Notes under the pieces: generated by a model
What the model was told of the DNA's origin: nothing
The model's database searches: none
The model's input: the letters and a program-made list of their open reading frames with translations, nothing else
Part shown: piece by piece, positions 185 through 37,963 of the stretch
How the letters are laid out: the number at the start of each line of letters is the position of its first letter
How positions within the stretch are numbered: position 1 is the first letter of the stretch
Source of the DNA: Parabacteroides acidifaciens
GTDB taxonomy: Bacteria > Bacteroidota > Bacteroidia > Bacteroidales > Tannerellaceae
Reading direction: 5' to 3'
DNA length: 37,963 nucleotides
Assembly (NCBI RefSeq): GCF_003363715.1
Contig: NZ_QREV01000025.1
Coordinates: 1-37,963 of the forward strand
Made by a program: the position numbers and the translations under genes

Positions 185-192
185 GTTATTTG

Positions 193-265
193 TGACCTGG
201 GAGGGGCTCGAACCCTCGACCCAATGATTAAGAGTCATTTGCTCTACCAACTGAGCTACCAAGTC
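193..265 (-). tRNA. tRNA-Lys (anticodon CTT), copy 2 of tandem pair
   Basis: A full cloverleaf folds on the minus strand. The acceptor GACTTGG pairs with CCAGGTC, the D arm is GCTC/GAGC, the anticodon stem is AATGA/TCATT around loop CTCTTAA, and the T stem is GAGGG/CCCTC with loop TTCGAGC. The anticodon CTT reads the lysine codon AAG. The gene is 73 nt with discriminator A, and CCA is not encoded, as is usual in Bacteroidetes. It is identical over its length to the neighbouring copy at 297-369 and is probably co-transcribed with it from the promoter at 403-433. Confidence 0.95.
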
Positions 266-296
266 GACGTTTTTTTGTTGGTTTTGTTTGAGTGAG

Positions 297-369
297 TGAC
301 CTGGGAGGGGCTCGAACCCTCGACCCAATGATTAAGAGTCATTTGCTCTACCAACTGAGCTACCAAGTC
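297..369 (-). tRNA. tRNA-Lys (anticodon CTT), copy 1 of tandem pair
   Basis: This has the same 73-nt cloverleaf as the gene at 193-265, with anticodon CTT and no encoded CCA. It is the promoter-proximal copy on the minus strand. The two genes repeat with a 104-bp period and the 31-bp spacer is T-rich on the plus strand. Exact identity suggests a recent tandem duplication or gene conversion. Confidence 0.95.
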
Positions 370-6487: not shown

Positions 6488-6689
6488 GGTTTTACCCCCT
6501 CTACCTGACACCAGATGAAATGAGGTGCCGAGGTCACTCCGAAATACGTGCAATTTGATTATCAGAAGGCCAAAACAGCGGCAAAGTGATAAAGCTTAAC
6601 TCCCGGAGAATCGAATATTTGAAAATAAAACGGACGGCGTCCCAAATATCCCAAGGAAATTCAGGGGGCTTTTTTACCCTTACAACGGT

Positions 6690-6802
6690 CCTCTTTCCAA
6701 TTACGACCGTTCTAATCTCCATTACGACCGTCCTAATCTTCGCGAGGTGCCGAGTGCACTACACATTAGAACGGTCGTAATGGCAAAGAGGACGGTCATA
6801 AT
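6690..6802. repeat. Inverted pair of 21-bp-phased ATTACGACCGT repeats
   Basis: ATTACGACCGT occurs directly at 6700-6710 and 6721-6731. Inverted copies follow at 6771-6781 (ACGGTCGTAAT) and 6792-6802 (ACGGTCATAAT, one change). Adjacent copies are spaced exactly 21 bp. The flanking words CTCTTT and TCTAAT are also mirrored, so the block can fold into a long imperfect hairpin with a loop of about 40 nt. The inner half overlaps the dispersed 148-bp element. Confidence 0.75.
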
Positions 6803-6918
6803 TGCTGGAAACACTCAAAAAAGGCGAAAAAGTCCCTTTTTGAGGTCAAAAAAGTGGATTAACATTTATTTAATTTCAGATGTCTTTCGAGCCTGAAAAA
6901 TGCGTTTTATACAATAAG
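6771..6918 (+). repeat. Dispersed 148-bp intergenic element, copy 1
   Basis: This segment aligns without gaps to the reverse complement of 37813-37960 with 16 mismatches (about 89% identity). It begins with the two inverted 11-mers and contains a hairpin (6814-6824 with 6834-6844, arms CTCAAAAAAGG and CCCTTTTTGAG). It ends in the AT-rich word TTTTATACAATAAG. It lies 19 bp from the M28 peptidase stop codon, so the hairpin may terminate that transcript. It has no convincing coding capacity. Confidence 0.85.
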
Positions 6919-17575: not shown

Positions 17576-17610
17576 AATTGAAAATTGAAAATTAAAAATT
17601 GAAAATTACC
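17576..17610. repeat. Heptamer array (AATTGAA)5, left half of an inverted pair
   Basis: Five consecutive 7-bp units read AATTGAA, AATTGAA, AATTAAA, AATTGAA and AATTACC. They lie between the start codon and the promoter of the AAA ATPase gene, so they fall in its 5' untranslated region. The matching inverted array is at 17701-17728. Confidence 0.8.
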
Positions 17611-17614
17611 GGCA

Positions 17615-17622
17615 CAAAGATA
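17615..17622 (-). promoter_or_regulatory. -7 box of the AAA ATPase gene
   Basis: The minus strand reads TATCTTTG. A -33-like ATTG lies at 17641-17644 with an 18-bp spacer. The box is bracketed by the two heptamer arrays. Confidence 0.6.
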
Positions 17623-17700
17623 AGAATCTTTTCTTATTTGCAATGCCGAGATTGCAATTTTATTATAAAAAGATAAAGTTCAAACTAACAAACGGCATTC

Positions 17701-17728
17701 TCAATTTTCAATTTCCAATGTTCAAACT
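17701..17728. repeat. Heptamer array (TCAATTT-type), right half of an inverted pair
   Basis: Four 7-bp units read TCAATTT, TCAATTT, CCAATGT and TCAAACT, in the opposite orientation to the array at 17576-17610. The array directly abuts the ilvE stop codon. Confidence 0.65.
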
Positions 17729-20548: not shown

Positions 20549-20609
20549 TTTTCATGGGCATAAAACAATATTTCCATGCCCATGAAAATATGTTTCCATG
20601 CTCATGAAA
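20549..20609. repeat. Palindromic intergenic repeat and likely bidirectional terminator
   Basis: TTTTCATGGGCAT (20549-20561) pairs perfectly over 13 bp with ATGCCCATGAAAA (20576-20588) around a 14-nt loop. The second arm is then repeated directly with a 22-bp period (TTTCCATGCCCATGAAA, then TTTCCATGCTCATGAAA). It fills most of the 80-bp gap between the convergent metF and asparaginase genes. Confidence 0.7.
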
Positions 20610-20616
20610 TATATTC

Positions 20617-29491: not shown

Positions 29492-29499
29492 CAAAGATA
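29492..29499 (-). promoter_or_regulatory. -7 box of lutABC
   Basis: The minus strand reads TATCTTTG, an exact TAnnTTTG match, 23 bp upstream of ATG 29469. The expected -33 position (29519-29522) reads TTTC and lies within the folded repeat element. Confidence 0.6.
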
Positions 29500-29502
29500 A
29501 CG

Positions 29503-29965
29503 ATGTTACTTTTCTCTTGAAAGAAAAGTAACCAAAAGTTCAAGGCTTAACCGTCCGGGCTACTCCGGGCAAAGGCTACGCTGTCGCCTGCGAAACTCGC
29601 TTCGCTCAGACAGCGCAGGCTCCTGCCGCTTCGCCTTTACCCTCCGCTTGACGCCCGTCCGCTTAGGCCTTTCTTAGAAAGCTCCGCTTTCTCTTAAGAT
29701 GGCCGATACCGCCTGCTCCTTTGCGGCCCCGTGTCAAGCACGGGGACAAGGAACAGGCGGTATCACAATCCTCAACAGAGCCGTCAGGCTCTACCTCCGG
29801 CCTAAGCTGGTGAGCGTTAAGCGCAGAGACCGCAGTGAGCGTCCGGAGCGTCTGCTGTTTGAGCGAAGCGAGTTTCAGACGCGACAGCGAACGAAGGGAA
29901 CGGAGTAGCGAAGCAGGTTCGGCCTTGATCTTTTGGTTACTTTTGGATCAAGCCAAAAGTAACAT
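29503..29965. repeat. 463-bp nested inverted-repeat element without a gene
   Basis: The outer arms 29503-29552 and 29916-29965 match inverted over 50 nt with about 8 mismatches; each arm itself holds a hairpin, perfect over 11 bp at 29936-29946 and 29953-29963. A 17-bp perfect inverted pair lies inside (29592-29608 with 29860-29876). In the centre a 60-nt hairpin (29705-29764) has arms of 11, 5 and 7 bp. It fills the space between carB and the lutABC promoter. A reading frame within it (29699-29908, plus) has arginine-rich, repeat-derived sequence and is not a likely gene. Confidence 0.75.
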
Positions 29966-32900
29966 CATTTATACTCTTGCCAACTCTTAATCTGTATATC
30001 ATCCAGACTCAGCGTGCAGAACGCCTCGATAAAGGCGCTTGCCAGGCGGGCGTTCGTGATCAGCGGGATGTTCAGGTCGATGGCGGCACGGCGGATCTTA
30101 TAGCCGTTGTCCAGTTCGCCGGCCGAGAGGTCACGCGGGATGTTGACGACCATGTCGATCTTCTTTTCGTGCAGCATGTCGAGTGCCTGCGGCTGTTTGT
30201 CCGCTTCGCTCGGCCAGAACACCTGCGTGTTGGAGATACCGTTTTCTTCGAGGAAGCGGTGCGTACCGCCTGTTGCGTAGAGGGTGTAGCCTTTTTCGGC
30301 CAGCATCCGGGCAGCGTCCAACATGGCCACTTTCTGTTTCGGCGTGCCGGTAGAGAGCAGGATACTCTTTTCCGGAATGCGGAGGCCGACGGAAAGCATA
30401 CTCTTCAGGACCGCTTCGGAGAGGTCGTCGCCAATACAGCCTACTTCGCCCGTCGAAGCCATGTCGACACCCAGAACCGGGTCGGCCTTCTGCAAGCGGT
30501 TGAAAGAGAACTGGGAGGCTTTGATCCCCACATAATCCAGGTCGAACTCGTTCTTACTCGGCTTTTCGACAGGCAGGCCCAACATGATGCGGGTAGCCAA
30601 TTCAATCAGGTTTATCTTCAACACCTTGCTGACAAACGGGAAGGAACGGCTCGCACGGAGGTTACACTCGATCACCTTTATTTCGTTGCCTTTAGCCAGA
30701 TACTGGATATTGAACGGACCGGAAATATTCAGTTCTTTCGCAATCTGACGGCTGATCCGTTTGATGCGGCGCACGGTTTCGACATACAACTTCTGCGACG
30801 GGAACTGGATAGTCGCATCACCCGAGTGCACCCCGGCAAACTCGATATGCTCGGAGATCGCATACATCACGATCTCGCCCTTATCGGCCACTGCATCCAT
30901 TTCCACCTCTTTGGCATGTTCGATAAACTGGCTGACCACGACCGGATGTTTCTTCGACACGTTAGCCGCCAGTTGCAGGAAGCGTTCCAACTCTTCCTGG
31001 TTAGAGCAGACGTTCATCGCCGCACCGCTCAGCACGTAACTCGGACGAACCAGCACCGGGAAGCCTACTTCGGCCACGAAATCGTTGATATCGTCCATCG
31101 AGGAAAGCTCTTTCCAGCGCGGCTGGTCCACACCGATGCGGTCCAGCATGGCGGAGAACTTCTCGCGGTCTTCGGCATTGTCGATGCTCTTGGCCGACGT
31201 TCCTAAGATGTTGACATGCTGTTCGTCGAGACGCATAGCCAGGTTATTCGGAATCTGCCCGCCCGTAGAGACAATCACGCCGTGCGGATTCTCCAGTTCG
31301 AGGATATCCATGACACGCTCGAAGGTCAGTTCGTCGAAGTAAAGGCGGTCGCACATATCGTAGTCGGTCGAAACCGTTTCAGGATTATAGTTGATCATTA
31401 CCGAACGCCAGCCCTCCTTGCGGATCGTGTTCAGCGCCTGCACGCCGCACCAGTCGAACTCTACCGAGCTGCCGATACGGTAAGCGCCCGAACCTAAGAC
31501 AACAATGGAACGGTGGTCGCCTACATACTGGACATCGTTTTCCGTCCCGCTGTAGGTCAGATACAGATAGTTGGTCTGTGCCGGATATTCGGCTGCCAGC
31601 GTGTCGATCTGTTTCACCACCGGGACAATGCCGTGCGCTTTACGATACTGGCGAACCAACATCATACCCTTCTCGATATCTTCTTCGAGGCCGAAAGCGC
31701 GGGCAATCTGGAAGTCGGAGAATCCCTGCTGCTTCGCCATGCGAAGCAATGGACAATGGACAATGGACAATTGACAATTAGAGTCCTTCTCTTCTTTCTT
31801 AATTGTCAATTGTCCATTGTCAATTGTCAATTTGTGAAGCTCCTTGGAGGTCTGCATGATGCCATAAAGCTTCTGCAGGAACCAACGGTCTATCTTGGTC
31901 AGTTCATGTATCTGGTCGACCGTATATCCGGCGCGGAATGCTTTGGAGATCGCGAAGATACGGCGGTCGGTCGGCTCGTGAAGCGCCTTGTCGATGTCTT
32001 CAATCACTAACTCTTTGTTTTCCACGAAACCGTGCATCCCCTGCCCGATCATACGCAGGCCTTTCTGGATAGCCTCTTCGAACGTACGGCCGATAGCCAT
32101 TACCTCGCCGACGGATTTCATGCTCGAACCTAATTCGCGGGCTACGCCGTGGAACTTACCCAAGTCCCAGCGCGGAATCTTGCAAACCACGTAGTCGAGA
32201 GCCGGTTCGAAGAATGCACTCGTCGTCTTCGTCACCGAGTTTTTCAGGTCGAACAGGCCGTAGCCTAACCCTAACTTGGCAGCGACAAAGGCAAGCGGGT
32301 AGCCTGTCGCCTTCGATGCTAATGCGGAGGAACGGCTCAGACGGGCGTTCACCTCGATCACGCGGTAGTCCTCGCTTTCGGGGTCGAAGGCATACTGTAC
32401 GTTACATTCGCCCACGATACCGATATGGCGGATGATGCGGATAGCTAACTCGCGCAGTTTATGATATTCGCTGTTGGTCAGCGTTTGTGACGGAGCAATG
32501 ACGATACTTTCACCGGTGTGGATGCCTAACGGGTCGAAGTTTTCCATGTTACAAACCGTGATACAGTTGTCGAAACGGTCGCGCACCACTTCATACTCCA
32601 CTTCCTTCCAGCCTTTCAGGCTCTTCTCGACCAATACCTGGGGCGAGAAAGAGAAGGCTTTTTCAACCAGCACATCCAGTTCCGCCTCGTTGTCGCAGAA
32701 GCCGGAACCCAGGCCGCCCAACGCGTATGCAGCGCGGACAATCACCGGATAGCCCAACTCGGCTGCTGCACGACGGGCATCCGCCGCATTCTCCACCGCC
32801 TCGCTCTTGATGGTCTTCACGCCGATCTCATCGAGCTTACGGACAAACAGTTCACGGTCTTCCGTATCCATGATGGCCTGCACCGGAGTACCGAGCACAC

Positions 32901-33234
32901 GGACGTTATATTTTTCCAGCACGCCGCTCTGGTAGAGCGCAACGCCGCAGTTCAACGCCGTCTGTCCGCCGAACGCTAACAGGATGCCTTCGGGACGTTC
33001 CTTGGCAATCACCTTCTCGACGAAGAACGGGGTGACAGGCAAGAAATAGACCGTGTCTGCCACGCCTTCCGAGGTCTGCACCGTCGCGATGTTCGGGTTG
33101 ATAAGCACTGTCTCGATGCCTTCTTCCTTAATGGCCTTCAACGCCTGGCTGCCTGAATAATCGAACTCGCCCGCTTCCCCTATCTTGAGGGCTCCGGAAC
33201 CGAGTACCAGGACTTTCTTTATATCTTCTTTCAT
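29965..33234 (-). CDS. carB: Carbamoyl-phosphate synthase large subunit
   Basis: This 1089-residue subunit makes carbamoyl phosphate from bicarbonate, ammonia and ATP for pyrimidine and arginine synthesis. The two ATP-grasp halves start with VLVLGSGALKIGEAGEFDYS (about 9) and VVLGSGAYRIGSSVEFDW (about 575). Signatures VEVNARLSRSSALASKATG and IECNLRASRSFPFVSKV are present, and the C-terminal MGS-like regulatory domain has YATGGTHRFLEENG. Residues about 467-496, in the oligomerisation region between the halves, are encoded by an inverted heptamer array. They read like repeat DNA (KLTIDNGQL and CQLSIVHCP) rather than conserved protein. It lies 29 bp after carA. Confidence 0.95.
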   Translation of the reverse strand: MKEDIKKVLVLGSGALKIGEAGEFDYSGSQALKAIKEEGIETVLINPNIATVQTSEGVADTVYFLPVTPFFVEKVIAKERPEGILLAFGGQTALNCGVALYQSGVLEKYNVRVLGTPVQAIMDTEDRELFVRKLDEIGVKTIKSEAVENAADARRAAAELGYPVIVRAAYALGGLGSGFCDNEAELDVLVEKAFSFSPQVLVEKSLKGWKEVEYEVVRDRFDNCITVCNMENFDPLGIHTGESIVIAPSQTLTNSEYHKLRELAIRIIRHIGIVGECNVQYAFDPESEDYRVIEVNARLSRSSALASKATGYPLAFVAAKLGLGYGLFDLKNSVTKTTSAFFEPALDYVVCKIPRWDLGKFHGVARELGSSMKSVGEVMAIGRTFEEAIQKGLRMIGQGMHGFVENKELVIEDIDKALHEPTDRRIFAISKAFRAGYTVDQIHELTKIDRWFLQKLYGIMQTSKELHKLTIDNGQLTIKKEEKDSNCQLSIVHCPLLRMAKQQGFSDFQIARAFGLEEDIEKGMMLVRQYRKAHGIVPVVKQIDTLAAEYPAQTNYLYLTYSGTENDVQYVGDHRSIVVLGSGAYRIGSSVEFDWCGVQALNTIRKEGWRSVMINYNPETVSTDYDMCDRLYFDELTFERVMDILELENPHGVIVSTGGQIPNNLAMRLDEQHVNILGTSAKSIDNAEDREKFSAMLDRIGVDQPRWKELSSMDDINDFVAEVGFPVLVRPSYVLSGAAMNVCSNQEELERFLQLAANVSKKHPVVVSQFIEHAKEVEMDAVADKGEIVMYAISEHIEFAGVHSGDATIQFPSQKLYVETVRRIKRISRQIAKELNISGPFNIQYLAKGNEIKVIECNLRASRSFPFVSKVLKINLIELATRIMLGLPVEKPSKNEFDLDYVGIKASQFSFNRLQKADPVLGVDMASTGEVGCIGDDLSEAVLKSMLSVGLRIPEKSILLSTGTPKQKVAMLDAARMLAEKGYTLYATGGTHRFLEENGISNTQVFWPSEADKQPQALDMLHEKKIDMVVNIPRDLSAGELDNGYKIRRAAIDLNIPLITNARLASAFIEAFCTLSLDDIQIKSWQEYK
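31747..31834. repeat. Inverted heptamer arrays inside carB
   Basis: On the plus strand left units read CAATGGA three times, then CAATTGA and CAATTA. After a 19-nt spacer the right half reads AATTGTC, AATTGTC, CATTGTC, AATTGTC. The core 31761-31780 and 31800-31819 is a perfect 20-bp inverted repeat. The whole is read in frame as part of carB, without a stop codon. Confidence 0.85.
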
Positions 33235-33263: not shown

Positions 33264-34430
33264 TTAAAGCAACGCTACAAACTTATCGAAGATAAACTCC
33301 GTATCCGTCGGTCCGCTGCATGCTTCGGGGTGGAACTGGGAAGAGAAGAAAGGCTTCGTCTTATGCTTGATGCCTTCGTTCGTCCCGTCGTTCATATTGA
33401 TAAAGAGCGGCTCCCAGTCTGCACCTAACGTATCGTTGTCTACGGCATAACCATGATTCTGGCTGGTGATGAAGCACCTCTCCGTCCCGACCATGCGAAC
33501 CGGCTGGTTATGGCTACGGTGGCCGTATTTCAGTTTATAGATAGAAGCGCCGCCCGCCTTGGCAAGCAACTGGTTTCCCATGCAGATGCCGCAGATCGGT
33601 TTGTCTCCGGCAAGTGCCTTGCGGATATGCTGGACAGCCACATCGCAGGTATCCGGGTCGCCGGGACCGTTCGAGATGAAAAGCCCGTCGTATTCCAGCG
33701 TATTGAAGTCGTAGTCCCAGGGGACGCGAACAACAGTCACATTCCGTTTCAGCAGGCAGCGTATGATATTCGCTTTCACGCCGCAGTCGAGAAGCACAAC
33801 ATGCTTCAGTTGAGAGTTGAAAGATGAAAGTTGAAAGTTATCAGAGCCTATAGGGTAAGTGGAAGAGGTGCCGTCGGGCCGGTAGACGATGATATCTTTG
33901 CAAGAGACACGGTCGACGTAGTTGATGCTTCCGTAATCCGGCATTTCACTTTCATCTTTCACCTTTCCACTTTCCACTTCGTTATCGGCATCGCTGATAA
34001 CGATGCGTCCCATCATTACCCCATGCTCGCGTATCTTTTTTGTCAATGCACGGGTGTCTATGCCCGTAATTCCGGGAATCATTTCCCGCTTCAGCCAGTC
34101 ACTCAGGCTTTCCACAGCATTCCAGTGGCTATATTCTTCGCTATAGTCACTCACAATAATTGCCTCCGCATGGATTTTCTCACTCTCCATAAACGTAGGC
34201 AGATCGTTCTCTTCGATAGAGAAAGGAGGTACTCCGTAGTTTCCGACCAACGGATAGGTCAGCACCATCAACTGACCGGCATACGAAGGATCGGTAAGGC
34301 TTTCCGGATAACCGGTCATGGCAGTATTGAACACCACTTCGCCGGCTACCGCCTTATCGTAACCAAAAGAGAAGCCGTGGAACTCGCTTCCGTCATCCAA
34401 AACCAATGTCGCTGTTTTTCTAACTTGCAT
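33264..34430 (-). CDS. carA: Carbamoyl-phosphate synthase small (glutaminase) subunit
   Basis: This 388-residue subunit releases ammonia from glutamine for CarB. The N-terminal CarA domain (about 1-150) has LVLDDGSEFHGFSFG and FNTAMTGYPE. The class I glutamine amidotransferase domain has the nucleophile cysteine in GICMGNQ (about residue 281), plus QNHGYA and SQFHPEA. Two segments, about residues 149-163 and 196-208, are encoded by heptamer arrays (33942-33983 and 33807-33841). They bracket the conserved NYVDRVSCK segment at the domain junction. carA starts 7 bp after purF and precedes carB by 29 bp. Confidence 0.95.
   Translation of the reverse strand: MQVRKTATLVLDDGSEFHGFSFGYDKAVAGEVVFNTAMTGYPESLTDPSYAGQLMVLTYPLVGNYGVPPFSIEENDLPTFMESEKIHAEAIIVSDYSEEYSHWNAVESLSDWLKREMIPGITGIDTRALTKKIREHGVMMGRIVISDADNEVESGKVKDESEMPDYGSINYVDRVSCKDIIVYRPDGTSSTYPIGSDNFQLSSFNSQLKHVVLLDCGVKANIIRCLLKRNVTVVRVPWDYDFNTLEYDGLFISNGPGDPDTCDVAVQHIRKALAGDKPICGICMGNQLLAKAGGASIYKLKYGHRSHNQPVRMVGTERCFITSQNHGYAVDNDTLGADWEPLFINMNDGTNEGIKHKTKPFFSSQFHPEACSGPTDTEFIFDKFVALL
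33807..33841. repeat. Heptamer array inside carA (array 2)
   Basis: Five tandem 7-bp units on the plus strand read CAGTTGA, GAGTTGA, AAGATGA, AAGTTGA and AAGTTAT. Read in frame on the minus strand they encode NFQLSSFNSQL. They are inverted relative to the array at 33942-33983. Confidence 0.85.
33942..33983. repeat. Heptamer array inside carA (array 1)
   Basis: Six 7-bp units on the plus strand read CATTTCA, CTTTCAT, CTTTCAC, CTTTCCA, CTTTCCA and CTTCGTT. Read in frame on the minus strand they encode EVESGKVKDESEM. About 18 of 20 positions are complementary to the array at 33807-33841, so the carA mRNA could fold between them. Confidence 0.85.
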
Positions 34431-37812: not shown

Positions 37813-37960
37813 CTTATTGTATAAAACGTATTTTTCCGGCTCAAAAGACATCCGAAACAAAACAAATGTTAATCCGTTTTTTTGACCTCAAAAAGGGACT
37901 TTTTCCTCTTTTTTGAGTGTTTTCCGCCATTGCGACCGTCCTCTTTGCCATTACGACCGT
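37813..37960 (-). repeat. Dispersed 148-bp intergenic element, copy 2
   Basis: This is the reverse-complement counterpart of 6771-6918, with 16 mismatches and no gaps. It carries 11-mers ATTGCGACCGT (37929-37939) and ATTACGACCGT (37950-37960) at 21-bp spacing, and the CTCAAAAA/TTTTTGAG hairpin. The element probably continues past the right edge of the window. It lies upstream of the flavin reductase promoter. Confidence 0.85.
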
Positions 37961-37963
37961 GCT

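What the first reader, a model, noticed from the sequence alone, without database searches (positions are those of the whole stretch)
31747..31834. An inverted heptamer-array repeat is inserted in frame within carB
An 88-bp block of 7-bp repeats, including a perfect 20-bp inverted pair, sits inside an essential pyrimidine gene. It encodes about 30 residues of repeat-derived peptide in the region between the two synthetase halves. The same style of repeat is otherwise found between genes here. The other two frames of the arrays contain stop codons, so only certain frames and lengths are tolerated. Because 7 is not a multiple of 3, gain or loss of one unit would shift the frame, which could act as a slippage switch on carbamoyl phosphate synthesis. 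It recalls Rickettsia palindromic elements in coding genes, but with a heptamer design.
Basis: partly seen in the sequence, partly recalled or inferred. Interest (0 to 1): 0.8.

Follow-up and report, generated by a model that had tools for sequence, protein, structure and literature searches.

The report
Translated heptamer-array hairpin in carB
The repeat inside this carbamoyl-phosphate synthase gene is real and lies in an open reading frame, and it is one of many hairpins built from 7-base repeats scattered through Parabacteroides-like and some Bacteroides genomes; at several sites both arms change their repeat motif together between species, while nothing here suggests an on/off switch.

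Summary
Window 31747-31832 carries two ~32-nt arrays of a 7-nt unit facing each other around a 21-nt loop, in frame in carB (1089 aa), encoding ~30 residues in the oligomerisation domain. Markov shuffles of the window give none.

It is not a lone insertion. Hairpins of the same design recur in this genome, part of its genus and some Bacteroides, mostly between genes, but also in frame in carA of the same window, in metH, and twice in a PD-(D/E)XK nuclease gene.

At orthologous sites the hairpin can persist while both arms switch to another heptamer (AATTGAC, AGTTGAA, AGTTGAC), keeping register and pairing. In coding arms the unit that would give TGA in frame reads TGG.

Best reading: translated copies of a dispersed inverted-heptamer family, tolerated in linkers, evolving in concert by hairpin template switching, 7-nt slippage and conversion between copies. 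The slippage switch is not supported: the six carB orthologues found with the hairpin are all open. Within-strain variation could not be tested, and how new copies arise is unknown. Closest published anatomy: facing GGGAATC arrays of Xanthomonas; closest behaviour: heptamer class replacement in the Nostoc trnL intron.

The parts
29965..33234 (-). carB, carbamoyl-phosphate synthase large subunit, 1089 aa, host of the hairpin
   Evidence: ORF and translation; Pfam CPSase_L_D1, D2, D3 and MGS domains
31747..31779 (.). arm of the carB hairpin, unit CAATGGA/AATTGAC; encodes the C-terminal part of the insert (minus strand)
   Evidence: period-7 run
31780..31800 (.). 21-nt loop between the arms
31801..31832 (.). 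other arm, unit AATTGTC; encodes LTIDNGQLTI on the minus strand, with TGG in the unit that would be an in-frame TGA
33264..34430 (-). carA, small subunit, 388 aa, host of a second in-frame pair
33808..33839 (.). carA arm, AGTTGAA type; encodes part of the second linker (DNFQLSSFNSQL)
33949..33979 (.). carA arm, complement of AGTTGAA type; encodes part of the first linker (EVESGKVKDES); 109 nt, mostly CarA coding sequence shared with relatives, lie between the two arms
17576..17719 (.). intergenic pair, AATTGAA type, with an 89-nt spacer, between two minus-strand genes

Best explanation
The carB block is a translated member of a dispersed family of hairpins made of two facing ~32-nt arrays of one heptamer. 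Shown: the family is abundant in this genome and in part of its genus and occurs in some Bacteroides; most copies sampled lie between genes; in-frame copies sit in variable linkers of CarB, CarA, MetH and a nuclease; both arms change heptamer type together while position and register are kept, and at the glycosyltransferase junction the loop is kept too. Inferred: copies survive in genes only where a linker tolerates them and where the in-frame TGA is lost. Inferred: homogeneity comes from replication template switching between the arms (which restores pairing), slippage by one 7-nt unit within arms, and conversion between copies in a genome (two sites in one nuclease gene share arms and loop). 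Not known: how a new copy is first made. No regulatory role is shown; a stem of about 30 bp in the mRNA could slow ribosomes at a domain boundary, but this is untested.
For: Period 7 only: 18 and 20 arrays in samples of two genomes against 0-2 for each other period from 4 to 15; inverted pairs 9 and 10 (8 distinct in the second) against at most 1 for each other period from 5 to 12. Of 16 neighbouring arrays within 130 nt in three genomes, 14 are inverted, 1 direct, 1 neither. Arm length peaks at 31-33 nt (44 of 102 arms of 51 sequence-distinct elements, outgroups and orthologues included). 17 of 20 elements in three samples are not inside a gene although about 10% of the sequence is intergenic by rough gene calls. 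In-frame hairpins: carB in 6 of 30 proteins aligned, carA in genus and Bacteroides genomes, metH in G000, G020, G025 and decayed in G013, two sites in the nuclease P0005 with the same 16-nt loop in G000. Arm switching: at the acyltransferase/glycosyltransferase junction G000 has AATTGAC and G014, G011 AGTTGAA, in the same register around a related loop; 8 of 30 stem pairs change on both sides, 0 of 500 shuffles as high. In carB, G023 differs from G000 by A to G at the same place in 4 of 5 units of one arm and by the matching T to C in all 4 aligned units of the other; 3 of 27 pairs changed on both sides, 3 of 500 shuffles as high. In carA, pairing of a species' own arms scores 16.5 against 10.8 when arms are dealt across species, 0 of 10000 permutations as high. 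Coding arms: the unit in the stop frame reads G in 22 of 22, other units in 17 of 67, intergenic arms in 24 of 130.
Against: No enzyme or intermediate was found, and no clean empty site with a target duplication: at metH the hairpin stands where relatives have about 72 nt of other linker sequence, so it looks like replacement, or insertion plus deletion. Concerted arms could also reflect selection for a pairing RNA. Loops are not shown to be native sequence in carB. Gene transfer between species could explain part of the sharing. In carA several species pair their own arms no better than average. The stop-avoidance count is partly built in, since only open frames were read, and the stems were drawn from one of the sequences counted, with only 5 and 4 related rows.
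Confidence: 0.68

Rival explanations
1. Slippage switch: gain or loss of one 7-nt unit turns carB off and on.
For: Arithmetic of 7 and 3; in the GA-type arm of carB both other frames hold TGA.
Against: Six of six hairpin-bearing carB orthologues found are open; the first arm aligns without a gap in 5 of 5 species aligned; arms across the family peak at 31-33 nt, unlike a freely slipping array; TTGA and TGGA units are mixed; a second carB exists. One genome per species: population variation not seen.
Confidence: 0.06
2. A functional RNA or DNA hairpin, for example setting translation or mRNA stability, kept by selection; base pairing is what is conserved.
For: Predicted stem of -40.6 kcal/mol, z -8.9; changes on both sides of the stem; intergenic copies abut gene ends, and at one junction the loop holds the start codon of the downstream gene.
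Against: Relatives do without it at the same genes: 24 of 30 CarB aligned, 17 of 30 genus carA without any period-7 signal, 16 of 20 metH linkers read, 25 of 30 glycosyltransferase junctions. No gene-orientation preference beyond base rate (15 of 17 co-directional, p 0.11 to 0.15); the carA stem is weaker (z -2.3); decayed copies exist; no Rfam match.
Confidence: 0.17
3. A mobile element moved as a whole by a trans-acting enzyme (REP/RAYT-like or reverse-transcriptase-based).
For: Dispersed copies; the same 16-nt loop at two sites of one gene; four of five hairpins around carAB of G023 of one heptamer type.
Against: The Y1 transposase family (RAYT) is found in 8 of 37 genus genomes and is missing in 8 of the 11 richest in the heptamer pattern (some of these are incomplete drafts); loops differ between most copies; no target duplication seen. 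Reverse transcriptases were not tested.
Confidence: 0.15
4. Assembly artefact.
For: Draft genome with 144 contigs.
Against: Orthologous inserts at the same site in five other genomes, one of them a single-contig assembly (G014).
Confidence: 0.01

Closest known systems
Facing GGGAATC heptamer arrays of Xanthomonas (PMC4692102; passages and section 10 read)
   Same: 7-nt unit, most arrays of four units, 186 and 183 sites in two genomes, 70 and 75 pairs facing each other, mostly intergenic, with length and sequence variation between the two species.
   Different: There G-rich and studied as quadruplexes; here A+T-rich without G-tracts. What I read does not describe in-frame copies in core genes followed across species, nor joint switching of the heptamer in both arms.
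Heptanucleotide Class I / Class II repeats of the Nostoc trnL intron P6b stem (PMC4476775; abstract, introduction and one discussion section read)
   Same: A stem built of complementary 7-nt repeats, with replacement of one heptamer class by another.
   Different: One intron stem in an RNA, not a dispersed genomic family and not translated.
Rickettsia palindromic elements (recalled; only a search listing seen)
   Same: Palindromic repeats translated in frame inside genes.
   Different: Recalled as families with a conserved sequence; here the constant part is the design (7-nt period, facing arms, arm length).
TAACTGA direct repeats of Beggiatoaceae, Cyanobacteria and five Bacteroidetes (PMC4679880; passages read)
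   Same: Dispersed heptamer arrays, some in Bacteroidetes.
   Different: Direct repeats, mostly just upstream of start codons; one inverted case among 170 sets in the genome studied.
Coding palindromes in Nematomorpha mitochondria (PMC6649704; abstract read) and template-switch hairpins (PMC8794818, PMC8604942; abstracts read)
   Same: Inverted repeats in coding DNA; a mutational route that keeps arms complementary.
   Different: No heptamer periodicity in what was read.

Membership tests
Facing heptamer arrays (Xanthomonas type) | 7-nt unit, about four copies, dispersed, many in facing pairs | tested here: met
Facing heptamer arrays (Xanthomonas type) | GGGAATC-like unit able to form G-quadruplexes | tested here: not met
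   units AATTGAC, AGTTGAA, AGTTGAC, GATTTAT, AATGAAG
Rickettsia palindromic elements | palindrome in an open frame inside genes | tested here: met
   (translation itself not tested)
Rickettsia palindromic elements | copies share one conserved sequence (recalled) | tested here: not met
   heptamers and loops differ between most sites
REP elements with RAYT transposase | a Y1 transposase in genomes rich in the element | tested here: not met
   PF01797 not found in 8 of the 11 array-richest genomes
Phase-variable simple sequence repeats | copy number varies and shifts the frame | tested here: inconclusive
   not seen between species; within-strain data not available
Invertible DNA segment | loop found in both orientations | tested here: inconclusive
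   at the one junction aligned, the loop has the same orientation in 4 of 4 species; no other site tested
Known Rfam RNA | match above gathering score | tested here: not met
   only two tRNAs in the window

The most novel reading that the evidence does not exclude
Bacteroidales carry a genome-wide, self-homogenising system of inverted heptamer arms: a trans-acting process with a lineage-specific heptamer rewrites both arms at many loci, also inside core genes, so that the arms of unrelated genes in one genome can resemble each other more than the orthologous arms of sister species.
Probability: 0.15. Interest if true: 0.85.

Novelty: new variant of a known kind. Interest (0 to 1): 0.55.

Why it matters
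It offers natural replicates of concerted evolution in very short DNA: both arms of a hairpin, separated by up to about 115 nt of ordinary sequence, change together while the protein stays open. That makes template switching between hairpin arms testable in bacteria. It also warns annotators that linkers of core enzymes in gut Bacteroidales can be repeat-derived, and that such peptides make unrelated proteins look alike (the CarB query hit the metH gene of this genome this way).

Tried and rejected
Whole-hairpin mobilisation by RAYT: tested with PF01797, not supported. Loop of the carB hairpin as leftover native linker: by best score no species beats its shuffles; by mean score G014 is weakly high (34 of 500 shuffles reach it), the other four are not (60 to 329 of 500). 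Preference for gaps between co-directional genes: not significant. AlphaFold2 model of CarB from 20 sequences: mean pLDDT 48.7, pTM 0.32, not usable; I rest the placement on Pfam and on natural length variation of the linker. Literature: searches returned no paper; the capped listings showed none describing these arrays in Bacteroides or Parabacteroides (one search listed 20 of 46,017, none with the word heptanucleotide). The library lacks most subscription journals, so absence from print is not established. Plasmid collection: 5 records matched the carB stretch; the one Parabacteroides record, P. distasonis TSDC17.2-1.1, has carB without the insert, and carA with one clear array but no detected inverted partner.

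Full report
What is there. carB (29965-33234, minus strand) is one open frame of 1089 codons. Inside it, 31747-31779 and 31801-31832 are arrays of a 7-nt unit facing each other across 21 nt; the longest perfect inverted pair is 22 bp. 200 first-order Markov shuffles of the window gave no such array or pair. As RNA on the coding strand it folds at -40.6 kcal/mol, z -8.9. The encoded segment lies in the oligomerisation domain PF02787.

It is one of a family. In 438 kb of this genome (window included) I found 18 period-7 arrays and in 400 kb of a relative (G014) 20, against 0 to 2 for each other period from 4 to 15. Inverted pairs: 9 and 10 (8 distinct in the second after overlaps are removed), against at most 1 for each other period from 5 to 12. 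A third sample (G011, 400 kb) has 3, so density varies. Of 16 neighbouring arrays within 130 nt in three genomes, 14 face each other, 1 pair is direct and 1 neither. Arm lengths over 51 sequence-distinct elements, outgroups and orthologues included, peak at 31-33 nt, 44 of 102 arms; gaps between arms range from 5 to 117 nt. 17 of 20 elements in three samples are not inside a gene, although about 10% of the sequence is intergenic by rough gene calls; two of the three genic ones come from the window itself. Exact three-unit matches to one degenerate heptamer pattern occur in 22 of 37 genus genomes; the tool's control (the pattern read backwards) also matches in 9 of them, which is expected in part because that pattern is itself a rotation of AGTTGAA. 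The stricter pattern gave 25 matches and 0 for its control in this genome. Outside the genus, 80 loci (1.5 Mb) gave 13 period-7 pairs against 6 of period 8 and 0 of period 6, and 46 arrays of period 7 against 16 of period 8; the background is higher there, but several of the pairs lie in carA of Bacteroides at the same place as here.

In-frame copies. carB: 38 genus genomes were searched and 30 CarB proteins aligned; 6 carry the heptamer linker (G000, G013, G014, G020, G023, G017), two others have long linkers of another kind, the rest a short one. The carriers fall in two clades of the CarB tree, with non-carriers beside them (G011; G003 and G004; the fork placing G011 is weakly supported), so loss, transfer or repeated gain must have happened. 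carA: of 110 loci examined (window, 29 genus, 80 outgroup), carA was read in 69; 25 have a second linker of 20 residues or more, and 20 show a period-7 signal, at a low cut-off, in at least one linker, 12 of them in both. Many other Bacteroidales have short linkers of 19 and 6 residues. metH: the linker was read in 20 of 30 loci; G000, G020 and G025 have clear arrays and G013 a decayed form. A PD-(D/E)XK nuclease gene (P0005) has two sites, seen in an alignment of 14 of the 30 loci fetched; in G000 both sites have the same 16-nt loop and AATTGAC arms, in G011 both have AGTTGAA-type arms and like loops.

Arms change together. At the acyltransferase/glycosyltransferase junction G000 has AATTGAC arms while G014 and G011 have AGTTGAA arms, in the same register around a related loop; G013 has one decayed arm; G020 has a GATTTAT-type pair; the other 25 of 30 loci show no array. 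8 of 30 pairs change on both sides, none of 500 shuffles as high (four related sequences, stem drawn from one of them). In carB, G023 differs from G000 by the same A-to-G step in four of five units of one arm and by the matching T-to-C step in all four aligned units of the other, five if the sequence is read on across the gap that MAFFT placed; 3 of 27 pairs changed on both sides, 3 of 500 shuffles as high (G020 was not in that alignment; the second arm of G014 is decayed and was not detected as an array). In carA, own arms pair better than arms dealt across species: 16.5 against 10.8, 0 of 10000 permutations as high (25 sequences, some without arrays, and several species below or near their cross-species mean). 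In 25 kb around carAB of G023, four of five hairpins are of the AGTTGAC type; another 224 kb of that genome added only two hairpins with loops up to 60 nt, both of a GATTTAT type, so one type per genome is not a rule.

Reading frame. A pure GA-type arm of three or more units has a TGA in every frame. In coding arms read in carB, carA, metH and the nuclease, the unit that would be a stop reads TGG in 22 of 22 cases, other units 17 of 67, intergenic arms 24 of 130. This is partly built in because only open frames, read from stop to stop, were taken, but it shows how a family member becomes translatable.

Mechanism. Shown: dispersal, facing pairs, a preferred arm length, in-frame copies, joint change of arms. 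Inferred: template switching between arms, 7-nt slippage within arms, conversion between copies. The route of new copies is open. The metH comparison shows replacement of about 72 nt by 82 nt rather than a clean insertion; at one intergenic hairpin (G000 C57:119220) G014 and G011 have only 10 and 24 nt at the site, the 10 nt being one heptamer and a half, which could be a seed or a remnant. The RAYT route is not supported. A role in expression is possible but unshown; relatives often lack the hairpin at the same genes.

The switch idea. The six carB carriers found are open; the first arm is gapless in the five aligned. The genome has a second CarB, by its length without the insert. I found nothing in favour of length switching, but one genome per species cannot exclude it.

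Known relatives. Facing heptamer pairs with about four units, mostly intergenic, are published for Xanthomonas (PMC4692102, passages and section 10). Replacement of one heptamer class by another in a paired stem is published for the Nostoc trnL intron (PMC4476775, abstract, introduction and one discussion section). TAACTGA arrays include five Bacteroidetes (PMC4679880, passages). Template switching as a maker and keeper of hairpins: PMC8794818 and PMC8604942 (abstracts); coding palindromes: PMC6649704 (abstract). Rickettsia palindromic elements are recalled. I therefore file this as a new variant of a known kind. The genus is named only by inference: the nearest named records are Parabacteroides.

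Noticed in passing
window 6680-6918 and 37813-37963: A ~239-nt repeat with internal 21-nt units and inverted parts; 40 near-full-length copies of 88-100% identity seen in this genome (this one included), with 40 of 141 candidates scored, so there may be more. The second copy lies inverted at the window end. MITE-like; function unknown.
   Followed up: partly
window 29499-29969: Between carB and the next gene, an interrupted inverted repeat (69-nt and 52-nt arms, 80-83% complementary) ending in TTTGGTTACTTTTGGATCAAGCCAAAAGTAAC, which has 11 copies in this genome at up to 2 mismatches, some as facing pairs.
   Followed up: partly
window 192-369: Two identical tRNA genes in tandem.
   Followed up: no
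window 20559-20614: Tandem 22-nt unit that is itself partly palindromic.
   Followed up: no
L151:16442-16549: The loop of an intergenic hairpin holds the predicted start codon of a glycosyltransferase, and an arm encodes part of its N-terminus, so the hairpin reshaped that end of the protein.
   Followed up: partly
L011 (G011 carB): G011 has a short CarB linker although its nearest relatives carry the hairpin; its linker resembles that of G002, which suggests local recombination.
   Followed up: no
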